Assembly (NCBI GenBank): GCA_003153435.1
Contig: PLYR01000087.1
Coordinates: 1 to 34,646 of the forward strand
Direction of reading: 5' to 3'
DNA length: 34,646 bases
From: Bacteroidota bacterium
GTDB taxonomy: Bacteria; Bacteroidota; Bacteroidia; Palsa-965
The first letter of the stretch is position 1, and every line of letters starts with the position of its first letter. Below, in pieces: positions 16,749 through 34,070 of the stretch. The notes beneath the pieces were generated by a model. It saw only the letters and a list, made by a program, of their open reading frames with translations. It had not been told where the DNA came from and ran no database searches. The position numbers were made by a program, and so were the translations under genes.

Positions 16749-16903
16749 CCTTCTTATTGCTTCAATTTGGGCATCGGAATGATGGCTCAGATGAAATGAT
16801 CTTAGTTAATGGATGAATTTGTGTTTCATCCGATGGTATATGAACTGCGCGGAATACGATTCAATAATTTTTGTTTACAGTTTCAAACGCTAATGACAGG
16901 CTA

Positions 16904-19900
16904 ATGAAACAACACTACAAAGTCCATATCCTTAAATGTTATATCCTGCTGATTTTATTCGGTGGTATAAATTCTTTGGGCTTGGCCCAGCGGTATAGCA
17001 TTGCCCCTTTTCCCAATCAACTTTTTTGTAGCTCTTCTTACCCGACTGCTTATAATACCGTAAACTTTGCGCTAAACGAAACAAATGTTACTGGTTTTAA
17101 CCGGAACCAGAACAATGTGACGATGATTCTGACCCTTCCGGCCGGGTTTCAGTTTAATCCTGCCGCAGGAACAATCAGCTTTACCGCAGCCAGGGGAATC
17201 ACCAGCATCGTGCTCACTTCAGTCACCACCACTGCCATCACCATAACCGTCACTACTAATAATAATAACACCCTATTAGATACTATTTACTTCAAAAATT
17301 TCCAGATCAGAGCCAGTGCCGCCGGTGCCGGGAGCCTTACCCGAACCGGTGGTACCATGCAAGTGGGTAATGCGACTACAAATCCCACTGCTGCCGAATC
17401 ATTCGGATACCTGAGTTCAAGCCCGGCCATGATACTCGACTCCAGTGTTGTTTCTCAATATACCATTGCCCCCATCAACCGTCAGTGTTCCCAGAGCGAA
17501 CAAGTCATACTGAGGATTAAAGTATGTGTAAAAGATACTTGCCCGGCCACCATCACTCAGTTCAATTTCAGTACCAACGGGGATGCAGGAGCTTCCGCAA
17601 ACCCATTAACCAATATTACCCGGGCCAATTTATTTTTCGGAGGAAACAATTCCATTCCGCTCATCGATGCAACTACTCCTTTATTCGGAACCGTTGCCAG
17701 CCCGAATGGGGCCTTCACCATTTCAGGATCTCAGCAATTACTGCTGGGTACGGGGAGCTACTATTTCTATCTGACTTATGATGTTCCGGTCACTGCCAAT
17801 ATCGGCGACCAGTTGGATGCTTCTCTTAACTCCTTCGTCTTTAACGGATCCACCATCACAACAGCTCTTAACCCGAACCCAACCGGTACCCGTACCATCA
17901 TCAGCACTGTTTGCAACACTCCCGATATGCCCGGCCCTCCGGCTAACTTGGTTACTGTTCCCGGAGGCTCTTATGTCATACCGATGGATAATACGAATCA
18001 GAGTCTTGTGGCACCTTTTAATGTCAAAGCCTATGGATTGGTACACGAGCTGCTGATGAATGATGTGCCGGTTAAATGGGTGATTCTTTCGGGTAAGGCA
18101 AAAGATGCCGCCGATTTTACAGCTAATGCCTCCCGTGTTTTCCCAACAGTGATTGCTTCCGCTCCGGTAACCTTTAAAGCAAGTGCCTTTATTATAGACA
18201 CTACCTGGCTCAATACTTCCTTTTATTCGGGTGGTCTTACCGCATTACAAGTCATTGCTGCATTCAATGCCCGGGGATCGGAGTATGCCAAGGTGGCCAT
18301 CTATAAACTCACCTCCAATACTCCTGTAAACGTTCGATATACACTTGATCAGCGTCCTAAAATTGCCTGCTTTAATAACGGAACCTACGAAGGAATTGCC
18401 ACCAAAATGCTGGACAGTGCAGGTATTACTAATTATGTAACAATCAGTGCAGGTGTTTTCCCAGGCTTGTCTCAATGTTTTACCTTTTGTTGTGAAGAAC
18501 ACTGGGATGTGGCTACGAACCCGCCTACAGCCCCGGCTACTGTTGGATCGATCACACAAAAGGTATGGGACTTCGTTTATGAAGGAGGAAATTTCTTTGC
18601 ACAATGTGCTGGTGTGAATACCTATGAGAACCTCATGAATTCCCCTCAGCATTTCCATTCCACCAATGGAGTGATTGTCAGCAACAGCAATACGGTCGCA
18701 ACCAATGCCTATTATAGTTCGGATATGGCCTTTATGCAGTTTGAAGGGAATGTAGTAGCCAACAATACCGGAACCGGTAAAAACTGGGTTCTAAACCGAC
18801 CCGGAGCATCGAAGTGGGTGAATAGCTTTTACCATGGATTGAGCGATAATGTACATATGGATACAATAGTGGCCGCTGCCGGCCACTTCCTCCCAGCCGA
18901 TTCTGTCGGAGGAAACGTTTTCTATCTTGGAGGACATGACTACGCGAATGGTGCTGCTGAATGGGGAAACATCACCTATGTGAATGCTATCAGGATGTTC
19001 CTGAATGCAACCTTGGTACCTGCAACACGTCCTACTGCCTTCACCCTTGCAGCAGGAGCTGCCCGCACCATTTGCAATGGAACCAATACAACCCTGGGAG
19101 GAAGCCCGACCGGCCCGACAGGAACAACTTATAATTGGAGCCCTTCTGCAAGTCTGAACAATGCTAACTCGGCAAACCCTGTTGCAACACCAACAGTTAC
19201 CACCACCTACACAGTTGTTGCCCAAAACGGAGGTTGTCCGGGTGGTCCGTCTTATGTTACCGTAACCGTCACTCCGCTCCCTGCCGCTCCTACTGCCTCC
19301 AGTAACAGCCCTGTCTGTGTGGGATCTGCATTAAACCTGGCCGCAAGCACCATCGCAACCGCCACTTATTCCTGGACAGGACCCAACACTTTTACATCTG
19401 CTGTTCAGAACCCCACCATTGCATCGGCCACTGTAGCCGCCGCAGGTACTTATTCCGTCAAGGCAACAGTTAACGGTTGTACGGGGCCCGCTGGAACCAC
19501 TGCTGTAGTCGTAAACGCTACACCCGGTGCGACCACTGCAAGCAACGGAGGACCCATCTGTGCTGGAAACACTTTAACACTAGCCACCCCAACCGTAGCC
19601 GGTGCTACGTATAGTTGGACAGGACCGAATGCATTTACATCTGCTCTGCAAAATCCTTCCATTTCCGCTGCCACCACAGCCGCAACAGGAACATATTCTG
19701 TTACTGTAACCGTTGGCGGATGTACGAGCGTGGCAGCCACCACCGCCGCCACCGTAACTGCAGTACCGGCAGCTCCGGCGCCAACGAGTAACAGTCCGAT
19801 ATGTGCCGGTTCCACATTGACTCTTGCTACAGCTACTGTAGCCACCGCAACGTATAGCTGGACCGGGCCAAACGGATTTACCTCAACCCTTCAAAATCCT

Positions 19901-22900
19901 TCTATTACTGCCGCAACGACAGCTGCAACAGGCACCTATTCAGTTATCGTAACCGTCAATGGCTGTGCGAGTGCAGCAGGAACGGTGGCCGCAACAGTAA
20001 GTCCGATCACGGCAACACCAGTTCCCACCAGCAATAGCCCAATCTGTGCAGGCTCAACACTCACGCTTGCAACGGCTACCGTAGCCACAGCTACGTATAG
20101 CTGGACGGGACCCAATGGATTTACGTCCACTTTACAAAACCCTTCCATAGCAGGTGCGACAATAGCCGCTACCGGAACCTATTCTGTTACTGTTACGGTT
20201 GGGGGCTGTGCAAGTGCTGCCGGAACAATTGCATGTACGGTGACGACCATACCCGCCACTCCTGCACCAGGAAGTAACACTCCTGTTTGTACCGGGAATA
20301 GTATCAACCTGACCACTGCCACCGTTGCAACGGCCACCTATAGTTGGACAGGTCCGAACGGATTTACATCCACTGTACAAAACCCTAGTATTGCAGGTGC
20401 TACCGCAGCCGCTGCCGGTACTTACTCTGTTACAGTTACAGTGAATGGATGCTCTGGAAGTGCAGGTACCACTGCGGTGGTCATCAACCCAACTCCGGCC
20501 ACTCCCGCACCTTCGAGTAATAGTCCGATCTGTGCCGGATCGACACTCACGCTTGCAACAGCTACCGTAGCAACAGCCACGTATAGCTGGACAGGACCCA
20601 ATGGATTTACTTCTACTTTGCAAAACCCTTCTATAGCAGGCGCAACGGTAGCCGCTACCGGAACCTACTCTGTTATTGTAACGGTTGGAGGTTGTGCAAG
20701 TGCCGCCGGAACAATTGCATGTAACGTGAATAGCATTCCGGCCACACCAGCACCAGGAAGTAACTCTCCCGTTTGTATCGGGAACAGCATTAACCTAACC
20801 ACTGCCACAGTTGCCACTGCTACCTATAGCTGGACCGGGCCGAACGGATTTGCATCCACATTACAAAACCCAACTATTGCAGGTGCTACCGCATCGGCAG
20901 CCGGCACATACTCTGTTACGATTACCGTGAATGGATGCTCCGGAAGCTCTGGGACCACTGCAGTAGTCATCAACCCTACTCCGGCCACTCCGGCTCCTTC
21001 CAGCAACAGCCCGGTATGTATCGGTGCGACGATCAGTCTTTCAACATCCGCTGTAGCCACCGCTACCTACAGCTGGACAGGCCCGAACGGATTTACATCC
21101 ACCTTACAAAACCCATCCATAGCTTCGGCAGTGGCAGCATCAGGAGGCACTTACTCGCTTACTATTACTGTAAATGGCTGCCCGGGTGCAGCAGGAACAA
21201 CCGCTGTGATTGTAAGTCCGGTTCCTTCTACCCCAGTGGCATCAAACAACAGTCCGATTTGTGTCGGAGATGCACTCAACCTCACTTCAAATCTAATAGC
21301 AGGAGCAACCTATAGCTGGACCGGGCCGAATGGATTTACATCCACCCTGCAGAATCCTTCTATTGCAGTTTCCACGGCACTTGCAACCGGCACGTATTCT
21401 GTATCTGTTAACATAGCAGGATGCCAGGGATCAGCCGGTACCACATATGCTGCAGTCAATTCCCCACCAGCAGCTCCGGTGGCTGGAAGTAACAGTCCGG
21501 TGTGTACAGGAAATACTATTAATCTAACAGCAAGCACCATCGCAGGCGCAACTTATACCTGGACCGGTCCCAATGGATTTACTTCCACTTTGCAAAACCC
21601 TTCGATAGCAGGGGCCACCGCAGCAGCAGCCGGCACTTATACGGTAAATGCAATTGTAAACGGATGTACCGGTGCCGCTGGAACGACTTCTGTAATCGTC
21701 AATCCTACCCCAGCAACCCCTACTCCTACAAGTAACAGCCCTATTTGTGTGGGCGTCACCTTAACCTTTGCAACGGCTACGGTTGCAACAGCTACATATA
21801 GTTGGACAGGGCCCAATGGATTTACCTCTACCCTTCAGAATCCATCCATTGCCGGTGCTACCACCAGTGCAACCGGCTCTTATCAGGTAATGGTAACAGT
21901 GGGTAGTTGTACAAGTGCACCTGGAATCGTATCCGCAACCATCAACAGTGCACCCGCTACTCCTGTTGCAGGCAGCAACACACCAGTATGTGCCAGTTTT
22001 TCAATTAACCTAATCGCTTCTACTATTGCCGGAGCAACCTATAGCTGGACCGGTCCGAACGGATTTTCGTCCACACTTCAAAACCCTACGGTCGCGGCAG
22101 CAACGGCAGCAGCAGCAGGAACATACACGGTAACTACAAATAATGGTTGCGCAAGCACTCCGGCCACCACTTCTGTGACCATACTACCTACTCCGGCCAC
22201 CCCTGCTGCAAGCAATGATGGCCCTGTATGCGATGGATCTAATATTGATTTCAGTACTCCTGCCGTTGGAGGAGCCACCTATAGCTGGACCGGCCCGAAC
22301 GGATTTACTTCCACCACTCAAAATCCAACCATCACAGCTGCAACTCCAGCTGCGACGGGCACTTACTCAGTAACCATTACTTCCGGTGGATGTACAAGCC
22401 TGGCAGGCACCACTGCCGCTGTGATCAATGCGATCCCTTCAGCTCCGGTTGTATCCAGCAATAGTCCGGTTTGTATCGCAGCTACCATCAGCCTCAGCGC
22501 AAACACAATAGCGGGTGCCAGCTACAGTTGGACGGGTCCGAATGGTTTTACATCCACACTTCAAAACCCCACGATTGCATCAGCCGTAGCAGCGGATAGC
22601 GGAACTTACTCAGTTACGATTACGGTCAACAATTGCACAGGGCCAGCAGGAACAACGGCTGTGGTGGTTAGCCCGGTTCCTCCAACACCGGTGGCATCGA
22701 GTAATAGTCCGGTCTGTTCCGGAAACACCATAAACTTACAGGCGAATACCATCGCAAGTGCAACATACAGCTGGACCGGACCCAATGGATTTACTTCCAG
22801 TCTGCAAAACCCTACGATTACCAATGCTGCTGCACTGAACGCCGGCACCTATTCCGTCTCCGTGAATATTGCAGGTTGCCAGGGCGCTGCAGGAACAACT

Positions 22901-25900
22901 GCGGTGATCATCAACCCCACACCAGCCACTCCTGTTGCCGGAAGCAACAGCCCTATCTGTGCCGGGTCCACTCTTACTCTCACTACCACACCTGTTGCCA
23001 CAGCTACTTATAGTTGGACAGGTCCCAATGGATTTACCGATGTAGTACAGAATACTTCCATCGCTGCCGCTACCGTTGCAGCCTCCGGAATATATAGTGT
23101 CGTGGTTAACGTAAACGGTTGTCCAAGTGCACCAGGTACCATCTCTGCAACCGTTAACCCAATTCCAACCACTCCTTCTCCTACCAGCAACACTCCTGTT
23201 TGTACCGGAAATGCAATCAACCTGCAGGTGGGTGCACTAGCGGGAGCTACCTATAGCTGGACTGGACCAAACGGATTTACATCCACCTTGCAAAATCCAT
23301 CTATTGCATCAGCCACCACCCTTGCCACCGGAACCTATTCTGTAATGGTGAGTGTAAGCGGCTGCGGTGGAGCGGCTGCTTCTACAGCAGTAGTGGTCAA
23401 CCCAACACCGGCGACGCCTACTGCAAATAACGACGGACCTGTTTGTGCGGGATCCAATATCGACTTCACAACACCGGTTGTTGCCACGGCTACTTATGCA
23501 TGGAGCGGACCCAATGGATTTTCATCTACCACTCAAAACCCAACGATTGTAAGTGCCAGTGCAGCTGCAACCGGAACCTATTCCATAGTAGTAACCGTCA
23601 ACGGATGTCCAAGTGCTGCAGGCACTACCGCCGCAACCATCAACGCCATTCCGGCTACGCCCGCACCTTTTAGTAACAGTCCGGTTTGCTTTGGTAGTAC
23701 TTTAAACGAAAGCACTTCAGCGATTGCAGGGGCAAGCTATAGCTGGACAGGCCCTAATGGTTTTACATCCACCCTTCAAAGCCCAAGCATAGCGGCAGTA
23801 GGCGCTGCGGCTGGAGGCACTTATTCAGTAACCATAACTGTAAACGGATGCTCCAGCCAGACCGGAACAGATAGTGTGATTATAAACCCATTGCCGTTAG
23901 CACCGCTGGCAGGAAGCAATTCTCCGGTTTGTTCCGGAAGCACCGTAAACCTTACTGCATCGAATATAGCAGGTGCTACCTATAGCTGGTCTGGCCCGAA
24001 CGGATTCACCTCTTTGGTTCAGAATGCGGCTGTCAATAATGTTCCCATGGCAGGAGCAGGTACATATACCGTTGTAGCCATCGCAGGCGGCTGTGCCGGC
24101 CCTGGTGGAACTACTTCTGTTGTGGTGAAAGCTACTCCTGTCGCCCCAGCCGCAGCGAATAACGGTCCGATCTGTGCTGGCACCACCCTGAGCTTAACTT
24201 CTGCTTTGGTCCCTACTGCAACCTATTCCTGGACCGGACCTAACGGATTCATTTCTTCAGCTCAGGACACCTCCATTGCAAATGCAACTGCAACTGCTTC
24301 GGGAACGTATGCTGTTGCCGTCACCATCAATGGCTGCACCAGTGCTCCTGGAACCACAGCAGCAACCGTCTATCCCATCCCAGCCCCTCCGGTGGCTGGA
24401 AGTAATAGTCCGCTTTGTGTAGGATCCACCATCCAGCTTTCAGCAAATGCAATCATAGGAGCAAGCTATACCTGGACAGGGCCGAACACATTCAGTGCTT
24501 CTGTTCAGAATCCTTCTATCACCGGAGGAGCTCCGATAAATAATGGAATGTATTATGTGAATGTAACCGTGAATGGCTGCACCGGTGGAACAGACAGTGT
24601 ATCTGTAACCGTGAATACAGGCCCGGCTGCTCCAGTCGTGACTACCAATAGCCCGATCTGCAGCGGAACAAATCTTAATCTCGTCGCGGATACGATTCCC
24701 GGAGCGATATACAGCTGGACCGGACCGAACGGATTTACTTCCAGTCTTCAAAGCCCTGTTATTACGAATGCTCCTGTGGCTGCTGCCGGAACCTATTCTC
24801 TGATTGCTAATAACGGATGTTCCAGTTTACCTGCAACGGCCAGTGTAACGATCAATCCCTCTCCTGCCCAACCGGTAGCAGGAAGCAACAGCCCTCTTTG
24901 TATAGGCAACACACTCAACCTCACCAGCACCACGCCAGGAGGTGTTACCTATAGCTGGACCGGGCCAACCGGTTTTACATCCATCTCGCAAGATACCTCC
25001 ATCACCAGTGCCACCGTGGCTGCAACCGGAACTTATACGATAGTGCTCACCAGTGGAGGATGTAACAGTTTACCAGGGAAAGTAGCTGTTACCGTCAATT
25101 CCACTCCGGCTACCCCTGTTCCTTCCAGCAACAATCCTGCTTGTACAGGTAATACATTGAATCTGATCTGTGACACGATTCCCGGTGCTCTTTATTCCTG
25201 GACCGGACCCAATGGGTTCACCGCATCCTCACAGGATTCATCCATAGCTAATGTTTCTTTATCAGCAGCAGGCACCTATACCGTAACCGCTAATAATGGT
25301 TGCGCGAGTGTGCCAGCAACTACAACTGTTCTGGTGAACCCCACCCCTGCTGCACCCGCTGCAATGGACAATAGTCCTCTTTGCACCGGATCATCTCTGA
25401 ATCTTTTTTCATCCCTCATCCCTTCCGCAACTTATCAGTGGACCGGGCCGAACGGATTTATATCTTATGCACAGGACACTTCTATTGCAGCAGCTACCGT
25501 TAGTGCAAATGGTACTTACACGGTAACCGCAACCTTGAATGGTTGTACCAGCAACTACGGAACCGTGGCTGCCGTTGTAAATCTGATTCCGGCAATACCC
25601 ACAGTCACCAGCAATACCCCGGTTTGCTCCGGAAACACACTTACTCTTTTTGCAGATACGGTTGCAGGTGCAACTTATAGTTGGACCGGGCCCAACGGTT
25701 TTACTTCAAACCAACAAAACCCAGTTCTTACCAATGTGGCTACAGCTGCCACCGGAACGTATTCTGTGACGATAACCACCAATGCCTGTACCGGTTCAGC
25801 CGGAACTACCAGTGTGACTATAAACCCAACTCCTGCAACACCTGCTCCGGGAAATAACGGTCCTGTATGTGTGGGTTCGCCTATTAACTTCAGTACCCCT

Positions 25901-28900
25901 GCAGTAGGAAGCGTAACCTATAGCTGGACAGGGCCCAACAGCTTCTCTTCAACCAGCCAGAACCCCGGCATCCTCAGTACGACCTCCGCTGATTCCGGAA
26001 GTTTTTCTTTAACAGTTACTGCAATTGGATGTACCAGTGCCCCTGGATTAACTAATGGGGTCATCAATTCATTCCCGCTTACTCCGTCCATTTCGAGTAA
26101 CAGCCCTGTTTGTGCAGGTTCAGGATTAAATCTTAACACACCAAGTCTGACAGGTGGCAGCTTTACCTGGAGCGGACCAAATAGCTTCAGCTCTGCACTC
26201 CAGAGCCCATCGGTCGCAATCATGACTTCTGCAGACTCCGGAATGTATTCAATGACGGTTACCCGAAACGGTTGTACAAGTCCTGCGGGTTCTGCTGATA
26301 TTGCAATTACTCCGTTGCCTGCATCACCAATGGTATCTTCTAATGGTCCGGTCTGTTCCGGCTCCACACTCATGCTCCATGCAGACACCATTATAGGCAC
26401 CACCTATTCCTGGACAGGACCCAACGGATTCACTTCCACCGCTCAAAATCCTGCAATTGCATCAGCAACAACCAGCGCAACCGGAATTTATACCGTGGTC
26501 GTTCAATCCGGCGGCTGTTCCAGTTCTCCTGATACGATCACGGCAATCGTCACCCCGCCTGCAGCAGGACCTACTGTATCTAGTAATAGCCCTGTCTGTG
26601 CTGGATCTCTCTTAAGTCTCTCTGCTACCGCAGGAACCGGAGCAACTTATAGCTGGACCGGACCGAATAGCTTTGCCGACACCGCACGGAATCCTTCTAT
26701 TACGGCTGCAACAGTAGCGGCAGCAGGTACTTACTCTGTAACCTATACGTTAGGGGGCTGCACCAGTGCCCCTAGCACATTGAATGTGATTGTAAATCCC
26801 GGTCCCGGCGCTCCACTTGCAGGAAGTAACAGTCCTCTCTGCGTAGGTTCCGGATTGAACCTCACCAGTAATTCCATTGCAGGCGCAACCTATGCCTGGA
26901 CTGGGCCGAACGGATTTAGCTCCTCCCTTCAAAATCCAGCTATTCCATCAGCCACTATCACGGAAGCTGGAACCTATTATGTTTCTGTAACCGTCAGTGG
27001 CTGTACAGGCAGTATAGACAGCACAAAGGTGACCGTAAGCACTACCCCTGCCATCCCTGTTATTTCGAGCAATAGTCCATTGTGTAATGGAACAACTTTA
27101 AATCTTATATCCAATGCAGTTGTAGGTGCAACCTATAGCTGGACAGGACCCAACGGATTTACTTCTTCTTCCCGGGATACTTCCATATCTCCTGTCACCC
27201 TTGCGGACACCGGTCAATACACCCTCATTCTGAATAACGGTTGTCCGAGCCTGCCAATCAGTTTAAATGTAAATGTGTATCCGGTCCCGGCTGCAACTGC
27301 TGGTAGTAATAGTCCGGTTTGTGTAGGCTCTATACTGAACCTCACCAGCAATACTTTTGCAGGTGCATCTTATAGCTGGACAGGACCAAACGGATTTACT
27401 GCTACAAGCCAAAACCCAACTATTGCAAACGCCACGACAGCAGCAAGCGGCACTTATTCTGTTACCCTCACCTCATCCTCAGGATGTATAGGATCACCGG
27501 GAACAATACTCGTGGCTGTCAATAATCCTCCAGCAACACCTGTCATATCGAGCAACAGCACACTCTGTAGTGGCGCGGCACTGAACCTTCGTTCTGATAC
27601 CATTGCCTGGGCAACCTATAGCTGGACCGGACCAAATGGATTTACTTCTGCAACCCAGGATCCAACGTTATCCAATGCAACCACATCTGAAACCGGCACC
27701 TATACGCTGAGTGTAAACAACGGCTGTGCCGGCACACCAGTTACGCTGAATGTACAAGTCAACCCTACTCCTTTGGCTCCTGTTGTTGGAAGTAATAGTC
27801 CGATTTGTGTGGGAGCTACACTGAACCTCACTAGCACTTCGCTTGCAGGCGCAACTTACAGCTGGACAGGACCGAACGGATTTAATGCCAGCATCCAAAA
27901 CCCGAATATTGCAGCAGCAACTGCAGCAGCAAGCGGCACTTATTCTGTAACGCTGACTTCATCTTCCGGATGTATAGGATCACCGGGAACAATACTCGTT
28001 GCTGTCAATAACCCTCCGGCAACACCCGTCGTATCGAGCAATAGCCCACTCTGTAGTGGCGCAGCTCTAAACCTCCATTCCGACACCATTGCCGGAGCAA
28101 CCTATAGCTGGACCGGACCAAACGGATTTAATTCTGCAACCCAGGATCCATCGATATTAAATGCAACCGTGTCTGAAACCGGCACCTATACACTTAGTGT
28201 AAACAACGGTTGTGCCGGCACACCGGTCACGCTGAATGTACAAGTCAACACTACTCCATTGGCTCCTGTTGTTGGAAGTAACAGTCCGCTTTGTGTAGGA
28301 TCTTCATTGAATCTTACTTCCAATACTGCAGGAGCATCTGCTTATATCTGGACTGGCCCCAATAGCTTCAACAGCAATCTCCATAACCCGGTGATCGTCA
28401 ATGTGAGCCTTGCCGATTCTGGAATTTATACAGTCAAAGCCAGTGCAGGGGTATGTACCAGCCCATCGGCCACCATCCATATTCAGATCAGTACCGGTGC
28501 ATTGGTTGAAGCCGGAAATAACCAGCAAGCTTGCTCCGGCAAAACATTTGTCCTTTCAGGAACGGTCAGTGGTGCTCCGAATGGAACGTGGAGCAGTTCA
28601 GGCAATGGAATATTCAGTCCTTCGGATACCGCTCGCAATGCTACGTATACCCCCGGCAGTACTGATTTGAGTAGTGGCAGTGCAACCCTAATCCTAAGCA
28701 CTCCAGCCAGCGGAACCTGTGCTGCGGTGAGTGATACCGTAATGCTAAGTATCAACCCGCTGCCGGTAGCAAACTTTGCACATACCCATGTATGCGGAAC
28801 AAACCCAATAGCATTCATGGATGCCTCCTCTATCTCCAGCGGAACATTCAGCATCTGGAATTGGAAATTCGGTGACTCTGTTACATTCACCGGTCAGAAC

Positions 28901-29296
28901 GCAAGCCACGCCTATACTTCGTCAGGAATCTATACTGTTACTCTTCAGGTAACCTCTGCATTCGGATGCAGCGGATCGGTGAGCGATACTATACAAATAG
29001 AAAATTGCGGAGAGAATGGAGTCTTCCCTCCGGTATTACCGGAAGCCTTTACTCCAAATGGTGACGGTCATAATGATATTCTGTATGTGCGTGGAGGGCC
29101 CTTCAAACAAATGGACTTTACCGTTTATAATAACTGGGGTAATGTAATCTTCCATACCAACACGCAGAGTCAGGGATGGGATGGCAGTTACGGTGGTCAG
29201 CCTCAGCCCGGAGGATCTTATGTGTGGATTCTTGTTGGAGAGACTATCGATAATCAGGCTGTGAAGAAAAAAGGAGATGTAACACTCATTCGTTAA
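16904..29296 (+). CDS. giant T9SS-exported adhesin: 38 Ig-like repeats, PKD and CHU_C C-terminus
   Basis: A 4130-aa surface protein. The start was set at the ATG at 16904 because it begins a signal peptide (MKQHYKVHILKCYILLILFG, ending LGLAQ); an upstream TTG at 16871 is in frame but unlikely. Residues about 30-345 are beta-rich; the 180-330 part resembles the N-terminal domain associated with BNR-repeat proteins (ITRANLFFGGNN; GSYYFYLTYDVPVTANIGD). Residues about 355-720 look like a glutamine-amidotransferase-like fold (FVYEGGNFFAQCAGVNTYE with Cys568; LGGHDYANG with His678). From about 794 to 3866 come 38 Ig-like modules of about 81 residues. Then follow a beta module, a PKD domain (NWKFGDSVTFTGQNASHAY) and the CHU_C domain (FTPNGDGHNDILYV; VYNNWGNVIF; GWDGSYGGQPQPGGSYVW). 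CHU_C is the T9SS type B signal. PorP/SprF follows 11 nt downstream. Confidence 0.93.
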   Translation: MKQHYKVHILKCYILLILFGGINSLGLAQRYSIAPFPNQLFCSSSYPTAYNTVNFALNETNVTGFNRNQNNVTMILTLPAGFQFNPAAGTISFTAARGITSIVLTSVTTTAITITVTTNNNNTLLDTIYFKNFQIRASAAGAGSLTRTGGTMQVGNATTNPTAAESFGYLSSSPAMILDSSVVSQYTIAPINRQCSQSEQVILRIKVCVKDTCPATITQFNFSTNGDAGASANPLTNITRANLFFGGNNSIPLIDATTPLFGTVASPNGAFTISGSQQLLLGTGSYYFYLTYDVPVTANIGDQLDASLNSFVFNGSTITTALNPNPTGTRTIISTVCNTPDMPGPPANLVTVPGGSYVIPMDNTNQSLVAPFNVKAYGLVHELLMNDVPVKWVILSGKAKDAADFTANASRVFPTVIASAPVTFKASAFIIDTTWLNTSFYSGGLTALQVIAAFNARGSEYAKVAIYKLTSNTPVNVRYTLDQRPKIACFNNGTYEGIATKMLDSAGITNYVTISAGVFPGLSQCFTFCCEEHWDVATNPPTAPATVGSITQKVWDFVYEGGNFFAQCAGVNTYENLMNSPQHFHSTNGVIVSNSNTVATNAYYSSDMAFMQFEGNVVANNTGTGKNWVLNRPGASKWVNSFYHGLSDNVHMDTIVAAAGHFLPADSVGGNVFYLGGHDYANGAAEWGNITYVNAIRMFLNATLVPATRPTAFTLAAGAARTICNGTNTTLGGSPTGPTGTTYNWSPSASLNNANSANPVATPTVTTTYTVVAQNGGCPGGPSYVTVTVTPLPAAPTASSNSPVCVGSALNLAASTIATATYSWTGPNTFTSAVQNPTIASATVAAAGTYSVKATVNGCTGPAGTTAVVVNATPGATTASNGGPICAGNTLTLATPTVAGATYSWTGPNAFTSALQNPSISAATTAATGTYSVTVTVGGCTSVAATTAATVTAVPAAPAPTSNSPICAGSTLTLATATVATATYSWTGPNGFTSTLQNPSITAATTAATGTYSVIVTVNGCASAAGTVAATVSPITATPVPTSNSPICAGSTLTLATATVATATYSWTGPNGFTSTLQNPSIAGATIAATGTYSVTVTVGGCASAAGTIACTVTTIPATPAPGSNTPVCTGNSINLTTATVATATYSWTGPNGFTSTVQNPSIAGATAAAAGTYSVTVTVNGCSGSAGTTAVVINPTPATPAPSSNSPICAGSTLTLATATVATATYSWTGPNGFTSTLQNPSIAGATVAATGTYSVIVTVGGCASAAGTIACNVNSIPATPAPGSNSPVCIGNSINLTTATVATATYSWTGPNGFASTLQNPTIAGATASAAGTYSVTITVNGCSGSSGTTAVVINPTPATPAPSSNSPVCIGATISLSTSAVATATYSWTGPNGFTSTLQNPSIASAVAASGGTYSLTITVNGCPGAAGTTAVIVSPVPSTPVASNNSPICVGDALNLTSNLIAGATYSWTGPNGFTSTLQNPSIAVSTALATGTYSVSVNIAGCQGSAGTTYAAVNSPPAAPVAGSNSPVCTGNTINLTASTIAGATYTWTGPNGFTSTLQNPSIAGATAAAAGTYTVNAIVNGCTGAAGTTSVIVNPTPATPTPTSNSPICVGVTLTFATATVATATYSWTGPNGFTSTLQNPSIAGATTSATGSYQVMVTVGSCTSAPGIVSATINSAPATPVAGSNTPVCASFSINLIASTIAGATYSWTGPNGFSSTLQNPTVAAATAAAAGTYTVTTNNGCASTPATTSVTILPTPATPAASNDGPVCDGSNIDFSTPAVGGATYSWTGPNGFTSTTQNPTITAATPAATGTYSVTITSGGCTSLAGTTAAVINAIPSAPVVSSNSPVCIAATISLSANTIAGASYSWTGPNGFTSTLQNPTIASAVAADSGTYSVTITVNNCTGPAGTTAVVVSPVPPTPVASSNSPVCSGNTINLQANTIASATYSWTGPNGFTSSLQNPTITNAAALNAGTYSVSVNIAGCQGAAGTTAVIINPTPATPVAGSNSPICAGSTLTLTTTPVATATYSWTGPNGFTDVVQNTSIAAATVAASGIYSVVVNVNGCPSAPGTISATVNPIPTTPSPTSNTPVCTGNAINLQVGALAGATYSWTGPNGFTSTLQNPSIASATTLATGTYSVMVSVSGCGGAAASTAVVVNPTPATPTANNDGPVCAGSNIDFTTPVVATATYAWSGPNGFSSTTQNPTIVSASAAATGTYSIVVTVNGCPSAAGTTAATINAIPATPAPFSNSPVCFGSTLNESTSAIAGASYSWTGPNGFTSTLQSPSIAAVGAAAGGTYSVTITVNGCSSQTGTDSVIINPLPLAPLAGSNSPVCSGSTVNLTASNIAGATYSWSGPNGFTSLVQNAAVNNVPMAGAGTYTVVAIAGGCAGPGGTTSVVVKATPVAPAAANNGPICAGTTLSLTSALVPTATYSWTGPNGFISSAQDTSIANATATASGTYAVAVTINGCTSAPGTTAATVYPIPAPPVAGSNSPLCVGSTIQLSANAIIGASYTWTGPNTFSASVQNPSITGGAPINNGMYYVNVTVNGCTGGTDSVSVTVNTGPAAPVVTTNSPICSGTNLNLVADTIPGAIYSWTGPNGFTSSLQSPVITNAPVAAAGTYSLIANNGCSSLPATASVTINPSPAQPVAGSNSPLCIGNTLNLTSTTPGGVTYSWTGPTGFTSISQDTSITSATVAATGTYTIVLTSGGCNSLPGKVAVTVNSTPATPVPSSNNPACTGNTLNLICDTIPGALYSWTGPNGFTASSQDSSIANVSLSAAGTYTVTANNGCASVPATTTVLVNPTPAAPAAMDNSPLCTGSSLNLFSSLIPSATYQWTGPNGFISYAQDTSIAAATVSANGTYTVTATLNGCTSNYGTVAAVVNLIPAIPTVTSNTPVCSGNTLTLFADTVAGATYSWTGPNGFTSNQQNPVLTNVATAATGTYSVTITTNACTGSAGTTSVTINPTPATPAPGNNGPVCVGSPINFSTPAVGSVTYSWTGPNSFSSTSQNPGILSTTSADSGSFSLTVTAIGCTSAPGLTNGVINSFPLTPSISSNSPVCAGSGLNLNTPSLTGGSFTWSGPNSFSSALQSPSVAIMTSADSGMYSMTVTRNGCTSPAGSADIAITPLPASPMVSSNGPVCSGSTLMLHADTIIGTTYSWTGPNGFTSTAQNPAIASATTSATGIYTVVVQSGGCSSSPDTITAIVTPPAAGPTVSSNSPVCAGSLLSLSATAGTGATYSWTGPNSFADTARNPSITAATVAAAGTYSVTYTLGGCTSAPSTLNVIVNPGPGAPLAGSNSPLCVGSGLNLTSNSIAGATYAWTGPNGFSSSLQNPAIPSATITEAGTYYVSVTVSGCTGSIDSTKVTVSTTPAIPVISSNSPLCNGTTLNLISNAVVGATYSWTGPNGFTSSSRDTSISPVTLADTGQYTLILNNGCPSLPISLNVNVYPVPAATAGSNSPVCVGSILNLTSNTFAGASYSWTGPNGFTATSQNPTIANATTAASGTYSVTLTSSSGCIGSPGTILVAVNNPPATPVISSNSTLCSGAALNLRSDTIAWATYSWTGPNGFTSATQDPTLSNATTSETGTYTLSVNNGCAGTPVTLNVQVNPTPLAPVVGSNSPICVGATLNLTSTSLAGATYSWTGPNGFNASIQNPNIAAATAAASGTYSVTLTSSSGCIGSPGTILVAVNNPPATPVVSSNSPLCSGAALNLHSDTIAGATYSWTGPNGFNSATQDPSILNATVSETGTYTLSVNNGCAGTPVTLNVQVNTTPLAPVVGSNSPLCVGSSLNLTSNTAGASAYIWTGPNSFNSNLHNPVIVNVSLADSGIYTVKASAGVCTSPSATIHIQISTGALVEAGNNQQACSGKTFVLSGTVSGAPNGTWSSSGNGIFSPSDTARNATYTPGSTDLSSGSATLILSTPASGTCAAVSDTVMLSINPLPVANFAHTHVCGTNPIAFMDASSISSGTFSIWNWKFGDSVTFTGQNASHAYTSSGIYTVTLQVTSAFGCSGSVSDTIQIENCGENGVFPPVLPEAFTPNGDGHNDILYVRGGPFKQMDFTVYNNWGNVIFHTNTQSQGWDGSYGGQPQPGGSYVWILVGETIDNQAVKKKGDVTLIR
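20012..20983 (+). repeat. duplicated two-module block (units 4-5 and 6-7)
   Basis: 20012-20497 and 20498-20983 are each exactly 486 bp and encode two modules. Units 4 and 6 share 'SNSPICAGSTLTLATATVATA', and units 5 and 7 share 'GNSINLTTATVATATYSW', so the pair was duplicated as a block in frame. Confidence 0.7.
27290..28258 (+). repeat. duplicated two-module block (units 34-35 and 36-37)
   Basis: 27290-27772 and 27773-28258 repeat the same pair of modules. Units 34 and 36 share SSSGCIGSPGTILVAVNNPP, and units 35 and 37 share CSGAALNL and YTLSVNNGCAGTPVTLNVQV. About 30 bases around GGATGTATAGGATCACCGGG are identical, indicating the most recent duplication in the gene. Confidence 0.75.
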
Positions 29297-29307
29297 CACC
29301 TATCTCT

Positions 29308-30327
29308 ATGAGAAAAAGATTAATGGTCGGAATTACATTGGCGTTTCTGGCATTGCTGGCATTAATCTCCGCAAGCCTGAACGCACAGGATTTTCATATG
29401 AGTCAATATGATGCCACCACACTCTATATGAACCCTGCACTTACCGGTATGTACACGGGTGAAAAAGGAGATTTCAGGATTACAGACGATTACCGTCAAC
29501 AGTGGAAAGCTCTTGGGATTAAACCATTCAGCACCATTTACATTTCTTATGATATGCCGGTCACCGTCAAGAAAAAGAAAATAGGCCTAGGAGCTTATCT
29601 CGTGAATGAAAGAGCTGGACAGGGAAATTTCAATACCCTGGAATTTATGGCTTCTGCTGCCTATAACATCATCGAAGGCTCTGAGAAGCATTATCTGACA
29701 ACCGGCCTGCAGCTGGGATTCTTTAACAAAAGCTTCAGTCCTTCCTCATTTACGTATGATGCTCAGTACTCTGGGAGCACCGGAAATTTCGATACCAATC
29801 TTCCTACCGATGAAAGCAATTCAAACACCAATCTCTTGCGCCTGGATGCGAACGTTGGAATTTATTATAAATATATCGCCAAAGAATCAAAGGCTAATCC
29901 TTACGTAGGTTTTTCAATTGATCACCTGAATATCCCCAAAGAAACCTTCGCAGGAACCACCACCCGGCTTCCCATGCGCTTTAACTATAATGCTGGGTGT
30001 GATATCAAGGTGAGTGAAACGTTTACAGTAGTCCCTAAAATCCTGTACATGCAACAAAGTACGGCTACAGAATTATTTTTCGGGGCTGAAATGCGATATA
30101 AGCTGAGCGGAGAATACACGGCCCTTTTAAATTTGAATTACCGGAACCAGGATGCTTTCGTCTTCGATATCGGCCTTAAAAAAGGAGGGCATGTGCTGAG
30201 GCTGGGATATGACCTGAATACCTCCGGTCTTTCTAATTATACCGGAGGCAGAGGAGCCTTTGAAATATCTCTGATTATCACCGGAATTAAGGGACAAAGC
30301 CTGTTTAGCAATAAGGCGAGGATTTGA
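29308..30327 (+). CDS. PorP/SprF family T9SS-associated outer-membrane protein
   Basis: A 339-aa beta-barrel-type protein. The signal peptide is residues 1-26 (ending LNAQ). The start of the mature part, DFHMSQYDATTLYMNPALTG (27-46), is the family hallmark, followed by 'YRQQWKALGIKPFSTIYISYDMPV' type sequence and a C-terminal FEISLIITGIKG strand. By family knowledge PorP/SprF proteins work with the type IX system and are paired with individual large CHU_C or SprB-like proteins to place them on the surface. The gene starts 11 nt after the giant adhesin, so it is almost certainly its dedicated partner. Confidence 0.92.
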   Translation: MRKRLMVGITLAFLALLALISASLNAQDFHMSQYDATTLYMNPALTGMYTGEKGDFRITDDYRQQWKALGIKPFSTIYISYDMPVTVKKKKIGLGAYLVNERAGQGNFNTLEFMASAAYNIIEGSEKHYLTTGLQLGFFNKSFSPSSFTYDAQYSGSTGNFDTNLPTDESNSNTNLLRLDANVGIYYKYIAKESKANPYVGFSIDHLNIPKETFAGTTTRLPMRFNYNAGCDIKVSETFTVVPKILYMQQSTATELFFGAEMRYKLSGEYTALLNLNYRNQDAFVFDIGLKKGGHVLRLGYDLNTSGLSNYTGGRGAFEISLIITGIKGQSLFSNKARI

Positions 30328-30461: not shown

Positions 30462-31490
30462 TTAAAGTACAATCAACTTGCTCACCGATTTGCTTGCCCC
30501 TGACGTAATTTCTACGAAGTATAAACCCGAAGTCAACCCTTGAGTCTGAATAGATTCAGAATAAGAACCGGAAGCAAGAAGGCCCTTGTTTAAATTCAAG
30601 ACAGTCTGTCCTTGCACATTAATGATTGTGATCTTGGTCTGCCCTTCCTCTTTCAAAACAAACTGCAGATTGGTAAAATTCTCACTCGATGGATTTGGGT
30701 AGAGGTATGCATGCAGATCAATTCCGGCTGTTTCATTGATCCCCGTAGAAGGTGTATAACCCATGTAAACAGATTTGCCTTTGTTTATAGATCCTGGGTT
30801 ATTGGATGGCCAGGTGATGTAGGATTGGATATAGAACACTGGTTTATGCTGGGAAGCTACATACCAGTTGTAAGAGGTCCATACATAATGCAGACCCACA
30901 AATCCAATCAGGGAATCATCATAATTTTCAATCACTTTTACACGAAGTGCATTGGTGTAGACCATCCCATCAGGAGTCTTAAGTGTTCCATACGCATCAG
31001 CCATTCCGTTATTGACTCCGAAAGCAGAATCCGGAAGTCCTCCTCCGTTTGAATGCCCTTGAAAAATATCGTTAAAAGCTCCGTTATAAGTAAGTGGGAA
31101 AGCAACCACTTCGAATGGTTTACTCATCACGGTATTCGAAGTAGCAGACGACTGTCCTCCCAATTCATAATAACCCGTAGCATCCACTTTGTAATAGGTA
31201 TAGCTTGCTCCACTTTGGGAGGCAAGGGTAGCGGCAGGATAATTTCCAACGTAGGGGGTTCCGGCTGCAGCAATATAGGTGGTTATAGTCTTGATGGTAT
31301 CAATAGTCTTTGTAGAAAAATCCCAGGTCACATTTGTTCCTGAAGCTCCTGGAGCACAGGAGGTATCAATCATTTTATAAGCAAACACATCCCCTATTAC
31401 AGGTGCATTGGTAGAAGAGGTAAGAGTGATCTGCGCTTGTGTGACAAAAGCAGTGATCAATAACAGAAAGGAGAAGTAGTATCTTTTCAT
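30462..31490 (-). CDS. secreted protein with T9SS type A sorting domain, function unknown
   Basis: A 342-aa protein with a signal peptide (MKRYYFSFLLLITAFVTQAQ, residues 1-20). The body is beta-rich with no recognised catalytic motif; it contains CAPGASGTNVTWDFSTKTID, common in Bacteroidota secreted proteins of unknown role. The C-terminal about 85 residues form a T9SS type A domain: LYPNPSSENFTNLQF, IINVQGQTVLNL, LTSGLYFVEI, ending SKLIVL. It has its own promoter and is not linked to the protease-inhibitor pair upstream. Confidence 0.8.
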   Translation of the reverse strand: MKRYYFSFLLLITAFVTQAQITLTSSTNAPVIGDVFAYKMIDTSCAPGASGTNVTWDFSTKTIDTIKTITTYIAAAGTPYVGNYPAATLASQSGASYTYYKVDATGYYELGGQSSATSNTVMSKPFEVVAFPLTYNGAFNDIFQGHSNGGGLPDSAFGVNNGMADAYGTLKTPDGMVYTNALRVKVIENYDDSLIGFVGLHYVWTSYNWYVASQHKPVFYIQSYITWPSNNPGSINKGKSVYMGYTPSTGINETAGIDLHAYLYPNPSSENFTNLQFVLKEEGQTKITIINVQGQTVLNLNKGLLASGSYSESIQTQGLTSGLYFVEITSGASKSVSKLIVL

Positions 31491-31688: not shown

Positions 31689-31988
31689 CTAACCCACCGT
31701 AATCTGAAATTCTTTTGAATCTAAGGGAGGCTTATCTTTTTCCCAGCTTCTGGTCTGCAAAAAAGTTACAGAGCATGTTCCGGATGAAACCCCTGTAATA
31801 GTGAAACGTTCGATCCCGCTTCCTCCAGCAAGCTTCATATCCCCGGGAATATATTCATTAGCGATCTGAAGTATGCTTATAAATTCCGGTTTATAGTGCC
31901 ACCCATACCCCGATGTTCTTTTACCCGGTAAATCAATCCGTACCGATTCATTCATCTTCAAGGCAATTTTTTCTATCTGCTTTTCCAT
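31689..31988 (-). CDS. chagasin-type cysteine protease inhibitor (I42 family)
   Basis: A 99-aa protein matching the chagasin fold, which blocks papain-type proteases by inserting three loops into the active site. Loop motifs are visible: KRTSGYGW (residues 23-30, matching NPTTGYxW), GGSGIERF (55-62) and RSWEK (80-84). There is no signal peptide, unlike many periplasmic relatives. It is preceded by AGGTGA at 31997-31992, three nt from the ATG, a Shine-Dalgarno-like site that is unusual in this phylum. The papain-family protease gene ends 73 nt upstream on the same strand, so the inhibitor is probably co-expressed with its target. Confidence 0.85.
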   Translation of the reverse strand: MEKQIEKIALKMNESVRIDLPGKRTSGYGWHYKPEFISILQIANEYIPGDMKLAGGSGIERFTITGVSSGTCSVTFLQTRSWEKDKPPLDSKEFQITVG

Positions 31989-32007
31989 AGTTCACCTAAT
32001 TAAATAA

Positions 32008-32039
32008 GATTAACCTGGCCCATAAAGGCCAGGTTAATC
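32008..32039 (-). terminator. 13-bp perfect hairpin between protease and inhibitor genes
   Basis: GATTAACCTGGCC (32008-32020) pairs fully with GGCCAGGTTAATC (32027-32039) around 6 nt. On the minus strand it is followed by TTATTTAATT, so it resembles an intrinsic terminator or an mRNA-stabilising hairpin. It starts 22 nt after the protease stop and ends 19 nt before the inhibitor start. No complete promoter fits in that remaining space. Confidence 0.75.
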
Positions 32040-32061
32040 CATTCTATTCTGAAACGAACAA

Positions 32062-34017
32062 TTAATTATTGACCAGTTCAGCCTCCATGTTTAAGGTGGC
32101 TTTGACTAATACTTTGGCAATGATCGGTCCAGCAAACCATCCGGACCCATTCCTCCACCAGTGTTGCACACTTCCATCATTCAAAAGGAGTATGCATTCC
32201 AGATCGAAACCATAACTGCTCTCAATGAGTCCGATAACCTGGCGAACGTTCGTACCAAAGGTAGTACTCATATGCCATCCGGTTCCACCGTAATTATCCC
32301 TCCACCAGTGCTGAGCAGTTCCTGCAACAGCCACACAAAGCTCGAAGTTTCCAATATTGGTTTCCTGTGTGGCCCCAAACTGACCTTCAATCATGACCGG
32401 TGCACTATAAACGTTGGCACCGAAACAGACTCCTTCATGCCAAACATTTCCATGGTCGTCATCCCTCCAGAAATGCCACATCTGGTGTGTACTTGCACAA
32501 ACAGCTACCAGTTCAAGATTCCCCTGATTACCATACTGACTTTGCACGAGTGTAGCTCCACTGTAGGAAACAAGTCCGGGTAACAAACCTCCGTCATGCC
32601 AGTTGAAACTACCATCTCTCCACCAGTGGTTCAGAGAACCGTCAGCTCTTCTCACCACCGCTTCAAAGTTTCCTGGAGCACCGTAATTACCCTGTATAAA
32701 GGCAGGAACTCCGGCTGCATTGGTGGGACCAAAGACTCCTCCATCATTCCATTTTCCGGTAGTCTGATCCAACCACCAGTGATGCAGACGGCTACCGGTA
32801 GTCAGGTATACGCATTCGAAATTGCGGTTATAGGTTGTTCCGGTAAGTGTCGGTGCAGAGGCCACATCATTACCGAAAGTGGGACCCGCTGCCCAGTTAT
32901 TGGTTGATCCGTCTCTCCAGTAATGCTTAACTGTAACTCCTGATTGAATTAACATTTCAAAATTCCTGTGCAAAGCTCCGTTTCCGCTTTCATAAAGATT
33001 GCCATTATGAATTCTTCTCTTCGTCCAGGGATCCGGATTCGGATCATTCACTCCATATTTGGAATAAACATCACAGCTGGCCTGTCCATACCCGATCCGG
33101 AAATATCCTTTCACCCCGTTCCAAACCTCTCCCCAGCCTTGCCCCCATGAATTCTTACAGATCCAGCACTGGTTCGTATCATCATAACCTACAGCAAACA
33201 CACAATGCCATCCCCTGCTGTAGTTGGAAGGATCGTTTGATTTTTTATAGACTCCTCCCCCATATCCGTCAAAATCGGCAAATACTTCAAAGCAAAGGGT
33301 AATCGGGCCCACGGTATCGATCCAGGTTTTTTGATCAGACATGGAGCTAAGCGTGGAATAATCGGTGATCTTCACGGTCCTTCCACTCCGGTCTGCGGTT
33401 GGCGTCCAGGCATGATCCCCGTGATAGTAAGGATAACAACCAGGATCCGCGATCCCGTTTTGTTTGATCCAGTCCAGTGCATTGGAAGGCCATCCTCCAT
33501 CACCACAATGAGCACCCATACCATCATGTACATCTCCTTCTGATCGGACACTCCATACACAATGCTGGATTCGAGTCATGCTTTCGACCACACCGGTGGC
33601 ACCAAACGACCAGCAGGATTCACATCCGTTCTGATCTTTGGGAAGAGTGATCCATCTCCAGCCCCAACGATCTCTCCAGTCAACCATATTGGCAGCACCG
33701 GCTGTCAGGCCTGCCACCATTTCAGGTTTGACAATTGCGTTGGCCAGATAGCTTACTTTGGCATCCTCACCGGTAATGAAACCAAGAGCCTTCCTTCTCT
33801 CATAAAGGAAAGGGTTTTGGGTGTTGGAATTGATAAGAAGCTTCAGTTCAATCGGTTTGGCATCAGCAGCCTTTACAATTTTTGGCGGAATGCTAGCACC
33901 CAGCGTATGCTGAGGCACCTGATCCGTGTCTTTCAGGGTTTCGTCGACGGTCCACCCCACTTTTTGATCCTTGACCAGCTTGGCAAGATCTTTTGCAATA
34001 AACGGTTTGTTAGCCAT
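32062..34017 (-). CDS. papain-family (C1A) cysteine protease with WW-rich six-repeat propeller-like domain
   Basis: A 651-aa protein. Residues 1-110 are a hydrophilic leader with no signal peptide, possibly a propeptide. The protease domain is about 110-330: Gln129 (oxyanion hole) and Cys135 in DQNGCESCWSFGA, His271 in WHCVFAVGYDD and Asn289 in CKNSWGQGWGEVW form a complete catalytic set. Residues about 335-640 contain six repeats of about 50 residues with the pattern NFExxV, HWWRDGS, W, GxxFGxNV, YG (for example LNHWWRDGSFNWHDGG), which suggests a beta-propeller of lectin type. The chagasin-like inhibitor follows 73 nt downstream. The arrangement fits protease plus its own inhibitor. Substrate is unknown; cytosolic location or export by an unrecognised route are both possible. 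Confidence 0.88.
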   Translation of the reverse strand: MANKPFIAKDLAKLVKDQKVGWTVDETLKDTDQVPQHTLGASIPPKIVKAADAKPIELKLLINSNTQNPFLYERRKALGFITGEDAKVSYLANAIVKPEMVAGLTAGAANMVDWRDRWGWRWITLPKDQNGCESCWSFGATGVVESMTRIQHCVWSVRSEGDVHDGMGAHCGDGGWPSNALDWIKQNGIADPGCYPYYHGDHAWTPTADRSGRTVKITDYSTLSSMSDQKTWIDTVGPITLCFEVFADFDGYGGGVYKKSNDPSNYSRGWHCVFAVGYDDTNQCWICKNSWGQGWGEVWNGVKGYFRIGYGQASCDVYSKYGVNDPNPDPWTKRRIHNGNLYESGNGALHRNFEMLIQSGVTVKHYWRDGSTNNWAAGPTFGNDVASAPTLTGTTYNRNFECVYLTTGSRLHHWWLDQTTGKWNDGGVFGPTNAAGVPAFIQGNYGAPGNFEAVVRRADGSLNHWWRDGSFNWHDGGLLPGLVSYSGATLVQSQYGNQGNLELVAVCASTHQMWHFWRDDDHGNVWHEGVCFGANVYSAPVMIEGQFGATQETNIGNFELCVAVAGTAQHWWRDNYGGTGWHMSTTFGTNVRQVIGLIESSYGFDLECILLLNDGSVQHWWRNGSGWFAGPIIAKVLVKATLNMEAELVNN

Positions 34018-34039: not shown

Positions 34040-34070
34040 CAAGTATAGACTCATTTAAAAATAAAGTCAA
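34040..34070 (-). promoter_or_regulatory. promoter for the protease-inhibitor unit
   Basis: On the minus strand TTG (34070-34068), 20 nt, then TATACTTG (34047-34040), one mismatch from TAnnTTTG. The transcript would start near 34033, giving a leader of about 16 nt. A small inverted repeat, ATGAG (34032-34036) with CTCAT (34050-34054), brackets the -7 element and could be a regulator site. Confidence 0.5.

What the first reader, a model, noticed from the sequence alone, without database searches (positions are those of the whole stretch)
31689..34017. Papain-family protease paired with a chagasin-type inhibitor in one transcription unit, both without signal peptides
The protease has an intact Gln-Cys-His-Asn set, and the next gene encodes an inhibitor of exactly that protease class. 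Most bacterial papain-like enzymes and chagasins are thought of as exported, but neither protein here has a Sec signal or a T9SS domain, while three other secreted proteins in the window have obvious ones. This looks like a cytosolic protease with antidote, comparable in logic to toxin-immunity or to a self-protection pair for an effector released by lysis or a contractile system.
Basis: partly seen in the sequence, partly recalled or inferred. Interest (0 to 1): 0.76.

Follow-up and report, generated by a model that had tools for sequence, protein, structure and literature searches.

The report
Lectin-armed protease with cytosolic inhibitor
The window holds a papain-type protease with a predicted lectin-like tail and, right behind it, the gene for an inhibitor of that enzyme class; both lack an export signal, and the same two genes travel together across several bacterial phyla, so the inhibitor most likely keeps the enzyme harmless inside the producing cell.

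Summary
Window 32062-34017(-) encodes a papain-family (C1A) protease with an intact Gln-Cys-His-Asn set, and 31689-31988(-) a chagasin-type (I42) inhibitor. Neither has a signal peptide.

Two things were missed. The protease ends in a beta-propeller most like the Photorhabdus PLL lectins. A 15-bp terminator-like hairpin lies between the genes, so 'one transcription unit' is doubtful here.

The pair is a conserved module. Among 51 orthologs with an intact catalytic Cys (Bacteroidota, Chlorobium, Acidobacteriota, Proteobacteria, Actinomycetota), 46 have I42 directly downstream on the same strand, and none of 58 proteases scanned has a signal peptide. These two are the only genes shared between phyla within 8 kb. 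Of six copies that lost the Cys, four also lack I42; suggestive, but not significant after correction for the tree.

Best reading: a leaderless, glycan-targeted protease kept in check in the cytosol by its own chagasin, analogous to staphopain/staphostatin. The release route is unknown; no contractile apparatus was found in this genome. The same genome exports two other proteases with I42 fused to the enzyme. Adjacent protease/inhibitor genes are known; leaderless C1A-propeller plus I42 was not found described. Binding and inhibition are untested.

The parts
32062..34017 (-). Leaderless C1A (papain-family) cysteine protease, 651 aa, with N-terminal ~110-residue domain, catalytic domain and C-terminal propeller
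   Evidence: ORF and Pfam PF00112 E=4.6e-35; cathepsin H/L-like in PDB by sequence; Q-C-H-N intact; no signal peptide
33691..34017 (-). N-terminal domain (residues 1-109): no Pfam name; W22, L39-G40 and N68 conserved; present in nearly all orthologs; possible propeptide (inferred)
33061..33690 (-). Peptidase_C1 catalytic domain; Cys135 in DQNGCESCW, His271, Asn289
32113..33003 (-). C-terminal beta-propeller with HWWRDG-type repeats, PLL/PHL-lectin-like
   Evidence: phmmer to PLL4/PLL5/CV39L chains 1.8e-7 to 6.9e-5; AlphaFold2 model matches PLL and PHL structures, Foldseek E about 1e-10, prob 1.0
32007..32040 (-). Terminator-like hairpin between protease and inhibitor (15-bp stem, 4-nt loop, tail TATTTAATTA)
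   Evidence: (z -6.0); the sister genome has a different hairpin at the same place (z -5.7)
31689..31988 (-). Leaderless chagasin-type (I42) cysteine peptidase inhibitor, 99 aa
   Evidence: Pfam PF09394 E=8.7e-17; chagasin chains of the PDB 1.2e-9
34042..34070 (-). Promoter-like site upstream of the protease (TTGACT-17-TATACT); consensus match only, no more than chance density

Best explanation
A cytosolic protease with its own antidote. The protease is made in the cytosol without an export signal, as a papain-type enzyme joined to a lectin-like propeller. The adjacent leaderless chagasin inserts its three loops into the active-site cleft and keeps the enzyme inactive while it is inside the producer, in the way staphostatin guards staphopain. 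When the protease leaves by a non-classical route (lysis is the simplest), dilution or loss of the inhibitor frees it, and the propeller holds it on glycans of other cells or debris, where it digests protein. Shown: genes, domains, catalytic residues, inhibitor loops, leaderless state, conserved adjacency across phyla. Inferred: that this inhibitor binds this protease, the self-protection role, glycan binding by the propeller, and the release route.
For: 46 of 51 Cys-intact orthologs in at least five phylum-level groups have I42 directly downstream on the same strand; the I42 domain starts between -20 and +102 nt of the protease stop, median 20. I42 is otherwise rare: 33 of 375 Bacteroidota-phylum genomes. 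Protease and I42 are the only genes shared between phyla within 8 kb. 0 of 58 proteases has a signal-like N-terminus. Three chagasin loops kept (loop roles from PMC2607524). A second leaderless C1-propeller subfamily also has I42 directly downstream, as does an unrelated leaderless C1 in L144. In the same genome two exported proteases carry I42 fused in cis, so I42-C1 partnership is recurrent. Copies that lost the catalytic Cys mostly lack I42 (4 of 6 against 5 of 51, Fisher p=0.004), and the genomes of L046 and L047 have none anywhere. PLL lectins lack signal peptides yet two were found extracellularly (PMC12203525).
Against: No binding or inhibition data. On the tree the Cys/I42 association is 3 pairs for, 1 against, 1 neutral: not significant. 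Two Cys-less copies keep I42 (L095, L115), and five Cys-intact copies lack it or have it broken (L055, L094, L097, L114, L118). Protease and inhibitor divergence do not correlate across 11 distant representatives (Mantel p=0.36). A terminator-like hairpin sits between the genes in the window and its sister. No export gene is linked. The propeller's sugar-binding residues were not checked. The AlphaFold chain holding both partners gave no interface score.
Confidence: 0.6

Rival explanations
1. The pair regulates an intracellular housekeeping or stress protease: the enzyme acts in the producer's own cytosol (as cruzipain is regulated by chagasin in trypanosomes), the inhibitor sets its level, and no release is involved.
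For: Both proteins are leaderless in every ortholog; protozoan chagasins are leaderless and control endogenous enzymes (PMC5014320); no export genes are linked.
Against: The conserved C-terminal propeller resembles lectins that bind surface sugars, odd for a cytosolic housekeeping enzyme; patchy distribution (2 of 30 genera among relatives; 29 of 393 Streptomyces).
Confidence: 0.2
2. Effector and immunity pair loaded into a contractile or other dedicated injection apparatus; the inhibitor is the immunity protein.
For: Small adjacent inhibitor, faster-evolving than its partner (99.9% of ortholog pairs); horizontal-looking distribution; other papain-like toxins have dedicated immunity proteins (Imm35 with Tox-PL1, PMC3482391).
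Against: No Phage_sheath_1 or VipB match in the window's 98%-complete genome; only 4 of 9 carriers have any sheath and none a VipB; no linked trafficking domain or apparatus gene.
Confidence: 0.08
3. Nutrient-scavenging or predatory digestive enzyme released on autolysis, with the inhibitor as a safety lock. This differs from the best explanation only in the target (food rather than rivals or hosts).
For: The genome secretes two other papain-like enzymes through T9SS; lectin propellers would hold the enzyme on polysaccharide-coated particles (inference).
Against: Scavenging enzymes are usually exported, as its paralogs are; this one is leaderless in all phyla.
Confidence: 0.1
4. The I42 gene is a chance or hitch-hiking neighbour whose real target is a foreign protease (as Pseudomonas Cip1 blocks plant proteases).
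For: Some bacterial chagasins do target foreign enzymes (PMC5014320); five active orthologs lack it.
Against: Cross-phylum adjacency with no other conserved neighbour; leaderless, so unlikely to meet foreign proteases; rare family in these genomes.
Confidence: 0.02

Closest known systems
Staphopain/staphostatin (C47 protease with cytosolic inhibitor, Staphylococcus)
   Same: Papain-fold protease gene next to a gene for a specific small inhibitor thought to guard the producer from misplaced activity (PMC2873492).
   Different: Staphopains are exported; the inhibitor has a lipocalin-like fold, not I42; no propeller; different peptidase family.
SpeB/Spi and Bacteroides fragilis Bfp/Bfi (C10 protease-inhibitor pairs)
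   Same: Adjacent, co-transcribed protease and inhibitor genes in bacteria, B. fragilis being a Bacteroidota member (PMC2873492).
   Different: C10 family; exported proteases; inhibitors are propeptide-like or staphostatin-like.
Cruzipain/chagasin (Trypanosoma cruzi)
   Same: C1A protease and I42 inhibitor; the same inhibitor loops (PMC2607524; chagasin chains found).
   Different: Eukaryotic; not a conserved gene pair; enzyme lysosomal or secreted; no propeller.
PLL/PHL lectins of Photorhabdus
   Same: Closest solved structures of the C-terminal propeller; also leaderless.
   Different: Stand-alone lectins without a protease domain; about 18% identity; sugar-binding residues not compared here.
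Exported I42-C1 fusion proteases of the same genome
   Same: The same two domains; one polypeptide with Sec signal, I42, C1, PKD and a T9SS-type tail.
   Different: Inhibitor fused in cis and exported with the enzyme; catalytic domain only 34-38% identical to the window's.

Membership tests
Peptidase family C1A (papain) | PF00112 domain over its cut-off | tested here: met
   E=4.6e-35, 122 bits against cut-off 20.7
Peptidase family C1A (papain) | Gln-Cys-His-Asn active-site residues | tested here: met
Peptidase family C1A (papain) | Proteolytic activity | not testable with these tools
   No assay
Inhibitor family I42 (chagasin) | PF09394 domain over its cut-off | tested here: met
   61.6 bits against 27.2
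Inhibitor family I42 (chagasin) | Loops NPTTG (L2), GXGG (L4), RPW/F (L6) | tested here: met
   Present in variant form: RTSGY, LAGGSG, RSW, aligned to chagasin
Inhibitor family I42 (chagasin) | Inhibits a C1 peptidase | not testable with these tools
   No assay; the AlphaFold chain with both partners gave no interface score
PLL-type beta-propeller lectin | Seven-bladed propeller fold | tested here: inconclusive
   All-beta repeats; Foldseek best hits PLL/PHL, E 4e-11, but TM to target only 0.55-0.63 and mixed confidence; blades not counted rigorously
PLL-type beta-propeller lectin | Sugar-binding residues and binding | not tested
   Residues not compared; no assay
Staphopain/staphostatin-type pair | Adjacent genes for a papain-fold protease and a signal-less inhibitor | tested here: met
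Staphopain/staphostatin-type pair | Co-transcription | tested here: inconclusive
   Terminator-like hairpin between the genes here and in the sister; genes abut or overlap in other phyla
Staphopain/staphostatin-type pair | Protease is exported by Sec; inhibitor lipocalin-like | tested here: not met
   No signal peptide; inhibitor is I42. Works like it, is not a member
Polymorphic toxin with immunity protein | Trafficking or repeat module plus variable C-terminal toxin | tested here: not met
   No trafficking domain; fixed architecture across phyla
Contractile injection (eCIS/T6SS) effector | Apparatus genes in the genome or locus | tested here: not met
   No sheath or VipB in the window's genome; none in conserved neighbourhoods

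The most novel reading that the evidence does not exclude
A widespread, horizontally moved module in which a leaderless, lectin-guided papain-type protease is released (for instance on lysis) against other cells, and a chagasin, so far known mainly from protozoa, serves as the bacterial producer's immunity protein.
Probability: 0.3. Interest if true: 0.72.

Novelty: new variant of a known kind. Interest (0 to 1): 0.52.

Why it matters
Bacterial chagasins have mostly been read as orphan inhibitors, or as weapons against host proteases. A cross-phylum pair with a leaderless protease gives them a likely native partner and makes it directly testable. It also raises the question of how a lectin-bearing protease without any export signal reaches its substrate. 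Streptomyces orthologs in which the active site, the inhibitor or both have decayed offer a natural series for the test. One genome using both solutions (inhibitor in trans for a leaderless enzyme, in cis for exported ones) is a neat comparison.

Tried and rejected
(1) Splitting of the local exported I42-C1 fusions as origin: rejected; the window's catalytic domain is 66% identical to that of a Ginsengibacter ortholog but 34-38% to the fused paralogs. (2) Contractile delivery: no sheath or VipB in the genome. (3) Phage or plasmid carriage: no phage match, only distant C1 matches on two plasmids. (4) Known defence system: no PADLOC match. (5) NCBIfam: no family for either protein. (6) Co-divergence of partners as evidence of contact: no signal among 11 distant representatives. 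(7) Correlated loss of Cys and I42: Fisher p=0.004 but not significant on the tree. (8) Predicting the complex as one read-through chain of the sister genome: a model was made, but the tool gave neither coordinates nor an interface score. (9) A first I42 scan wrongly called L085 and L087 inhibitor-less because of an ORF filter; corrected by reading the frames.

Full report
1. What is there. The two genes are at the stated coordinates. The protease (32062-34017, minus strand, 651 aa) has one Pfam domain, Peptidase_C1, at residues 110-319 (E=4.6e-35), and the next gene (31689-31988, 99 aa) is Inhibitor_I42 (E=8.7e-17). The closest solved relatives by sequence are cathepsins H and L for the catalytic domain and Trypanosoma chagasin for the inhibitor (1.2e-9). 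Gln, Cys, His and Asn of the active site are present. Chagasin's three contact loops are recognisable: RTSGY for NPTTG, LAGGSG for GXGG, RSW for RPW (loop roles from PMC2607524).

2. The C-terminal half of the protease is a repeat domain (HWWRDG motifs) with no Pfam hit over its cut-off. By sequence it is weakly like Photorhabdus PLL-family lectins and CV39L (1.8e-7 to 6.9e-5). An AlphaFold2 model from 18 orthologs (mean pLDDT 74.6) matches PLL and PHL lectin structures best (Foldseek E about 1e-10, TM to target 0.55-0.63). So the enzyme is probably a lectin-guided protease; sugar binding is an inference. The N-terminal ~110 residues carry conserved positions (W22, L39-G40, N68) but have no Pfam name; they could be a propeptide.

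3. Export. Neither N-terminus has a hydrophobic stretch (best 11-residue mean 0.89 and 1.0), unlike two exported neighbours (2.6-2.8). A T9SS tail is found at 30462-31490 but not in either protein of the pair. 0 of 58 family proteases scanned has a signal-like N-terminus, so the leaderless state is a property of the family.

4. Transcription. A 15-bp hairpin with a T-rich tail lies between the genes (32007-32040; folding z -6.0). The sister genome has a different hairpin at the same place (z -5.7). In most other orthologs the genes abut or overlap (I42 domain start -20 to +102 nt from the protease stop, median 20). Co-transcription is likely there, but unproven and doubtful in the window.

5. 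The same genome. It has four C1 and three I42 matches. Two C1 proteins are Sec signal - I42 - C1 - PKD with a T9SS-type tail (the C146 copy contains N's). The inhibitor is thus in cis for the exported enzymes and in trans for the leaderless one.

6. Conservation of the pair. The nearest congener (G003) has protease 86% and inhibitor 48% identical. A scan of 84,980 species genomes found 22 loci in Bacteroidota, Chlorobium, Acidobacteriota, Proteobacteria and Actinomycetota; two samples of Streptomycetaceae added more. In total 57 orthologs had readable downstream sequence. Of 51 with the catalytic Cys, 46 have I42 directly behind on the same strand; the exceptions are L055, L094 (I42 broken), L097, L114 and L118. 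Pfam confirms I42 in divergent partners, although two Streptomyces ones fall below the cut-off. Protease and I42 are the only cross-phylum neighbours within 8 kb. A second leaderless C1 subfamily with another propeller has the same arrangement.

7. Base rate. I42 occurs in 33 of 375 genomes of the phylum. Of 29 I42 loci read, 17 have a C1 gene directly upstream on the same strand; one (L144) is a leaderless/leaderless pair of another C1 type. In Chlorobiaceae the C1 is leaderless while I42 has a lipoprotein-like signal. So C1-I42 linkage is common, and the compartment of the inhibitor varies.

8. Natural experiments. Six orthologs lost the catalytic Cys: L046, L047, L053 and L112 lack I42; L095 and L115 keep it. 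Against 5 of 51 among intact ones, Fisher p=0.004. The genomes of L046 and L047 have no I42 anywhere, that of L053 only noise-level matches. On the tree there are five independent Cys losses: three go with I42 loss, one opposite, one neutral, not significant. The result points the expected way but is weak.

9. Mechanism. Most likely the inhibitor occupies the active-site cleft and holds the enzyme inactive in the cytosol; after release the propeller anchors the freed enzyme on glycans. Shown: anatomy, conservation, leaderless state. Inferred: binding, protection, glycan targeting, release. A contractile route is not supported in this genome and nothing in the neighbourhood suggests another route. 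PLL lectins are a precedent for leaderless proteins found outside cells (PMC12203525).

10. Comparison and novelty. Adjacent bacterial protease/inhibitor genes are known: staphopain/staphostatin, SpeB/Spi, and Bfp/Bfi in Bacteroides (PMC2873492). Protozoan chagasins control endogenous papain-like enzymes (PMC5014320). The combination of leaderless C1A, lectin-like propeller and leaderless I42 across phyla was not found described in the open-access library searched, which lacks most subscription journals. I call it a new variant of a known kind.

Noticed in passing
L014 (G000:C54:37594-38160) and L013 (G000:C146:78181-78756): Two paralogous exported proteases of the same genome with Sec signal, I42 fused N-terminal to C1, PKD and T9SS-type tail; the congeners G001 and G002 have similar fusions.
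   Followed up: partly
window 16871-29296 (+): Giant 4141-aa protein of about 80-residue tandem repeats (243/486-bp periods) ending in what looks like a gliding-motility-type C-terminal domain, next to a PorP/SprF gene at 29308-30327; probably a T9SS adhesin.
   Followed up: no
window 13751-14692 (+): Pfam Beta-lactamase2 domain (2.1e-37): probable class A beta-lactamase.
   Followed up: no
L039 6408-7681: A second, unrelated leaderless C1 gene with its own I42 directly upstream of the main pair: two protease-inhibitor pairs in a row.
   Followed up: partly
L122-L145 (Chlorobiaceae loci): Leaderless C1 of the 'RICN' type followed by I42 with a lipoprotein-like signal; protease and inhibitor seem to belong to different compartments.
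   Followed up: partly
L028, L017, L019: Leaderless C1 protease with a different propeller ('TAAWQPGDT..WRGWW' repeats) followed by I42: a second family of the same design.
   Followed up: partly
L041 9864-9882 and several other Streptomyces loci: I42 follows in frame after a single TGA of the protease with no ATG nearby; start at GTG or read-through not resolved.
   Followed up: no
L094 and L095: Sister Streptomyces loci broken in opposite partners: L095 lost the catalytic Cys but keeps I42; L094 keeps Cys but has an internally deleted I42.
   Followed up: partly
L016 68-1102 (+): A TIR-domain-like protein gene next to the Chlorobium pair, opposite strand; not conserved elsewhere.
   Followed up: no
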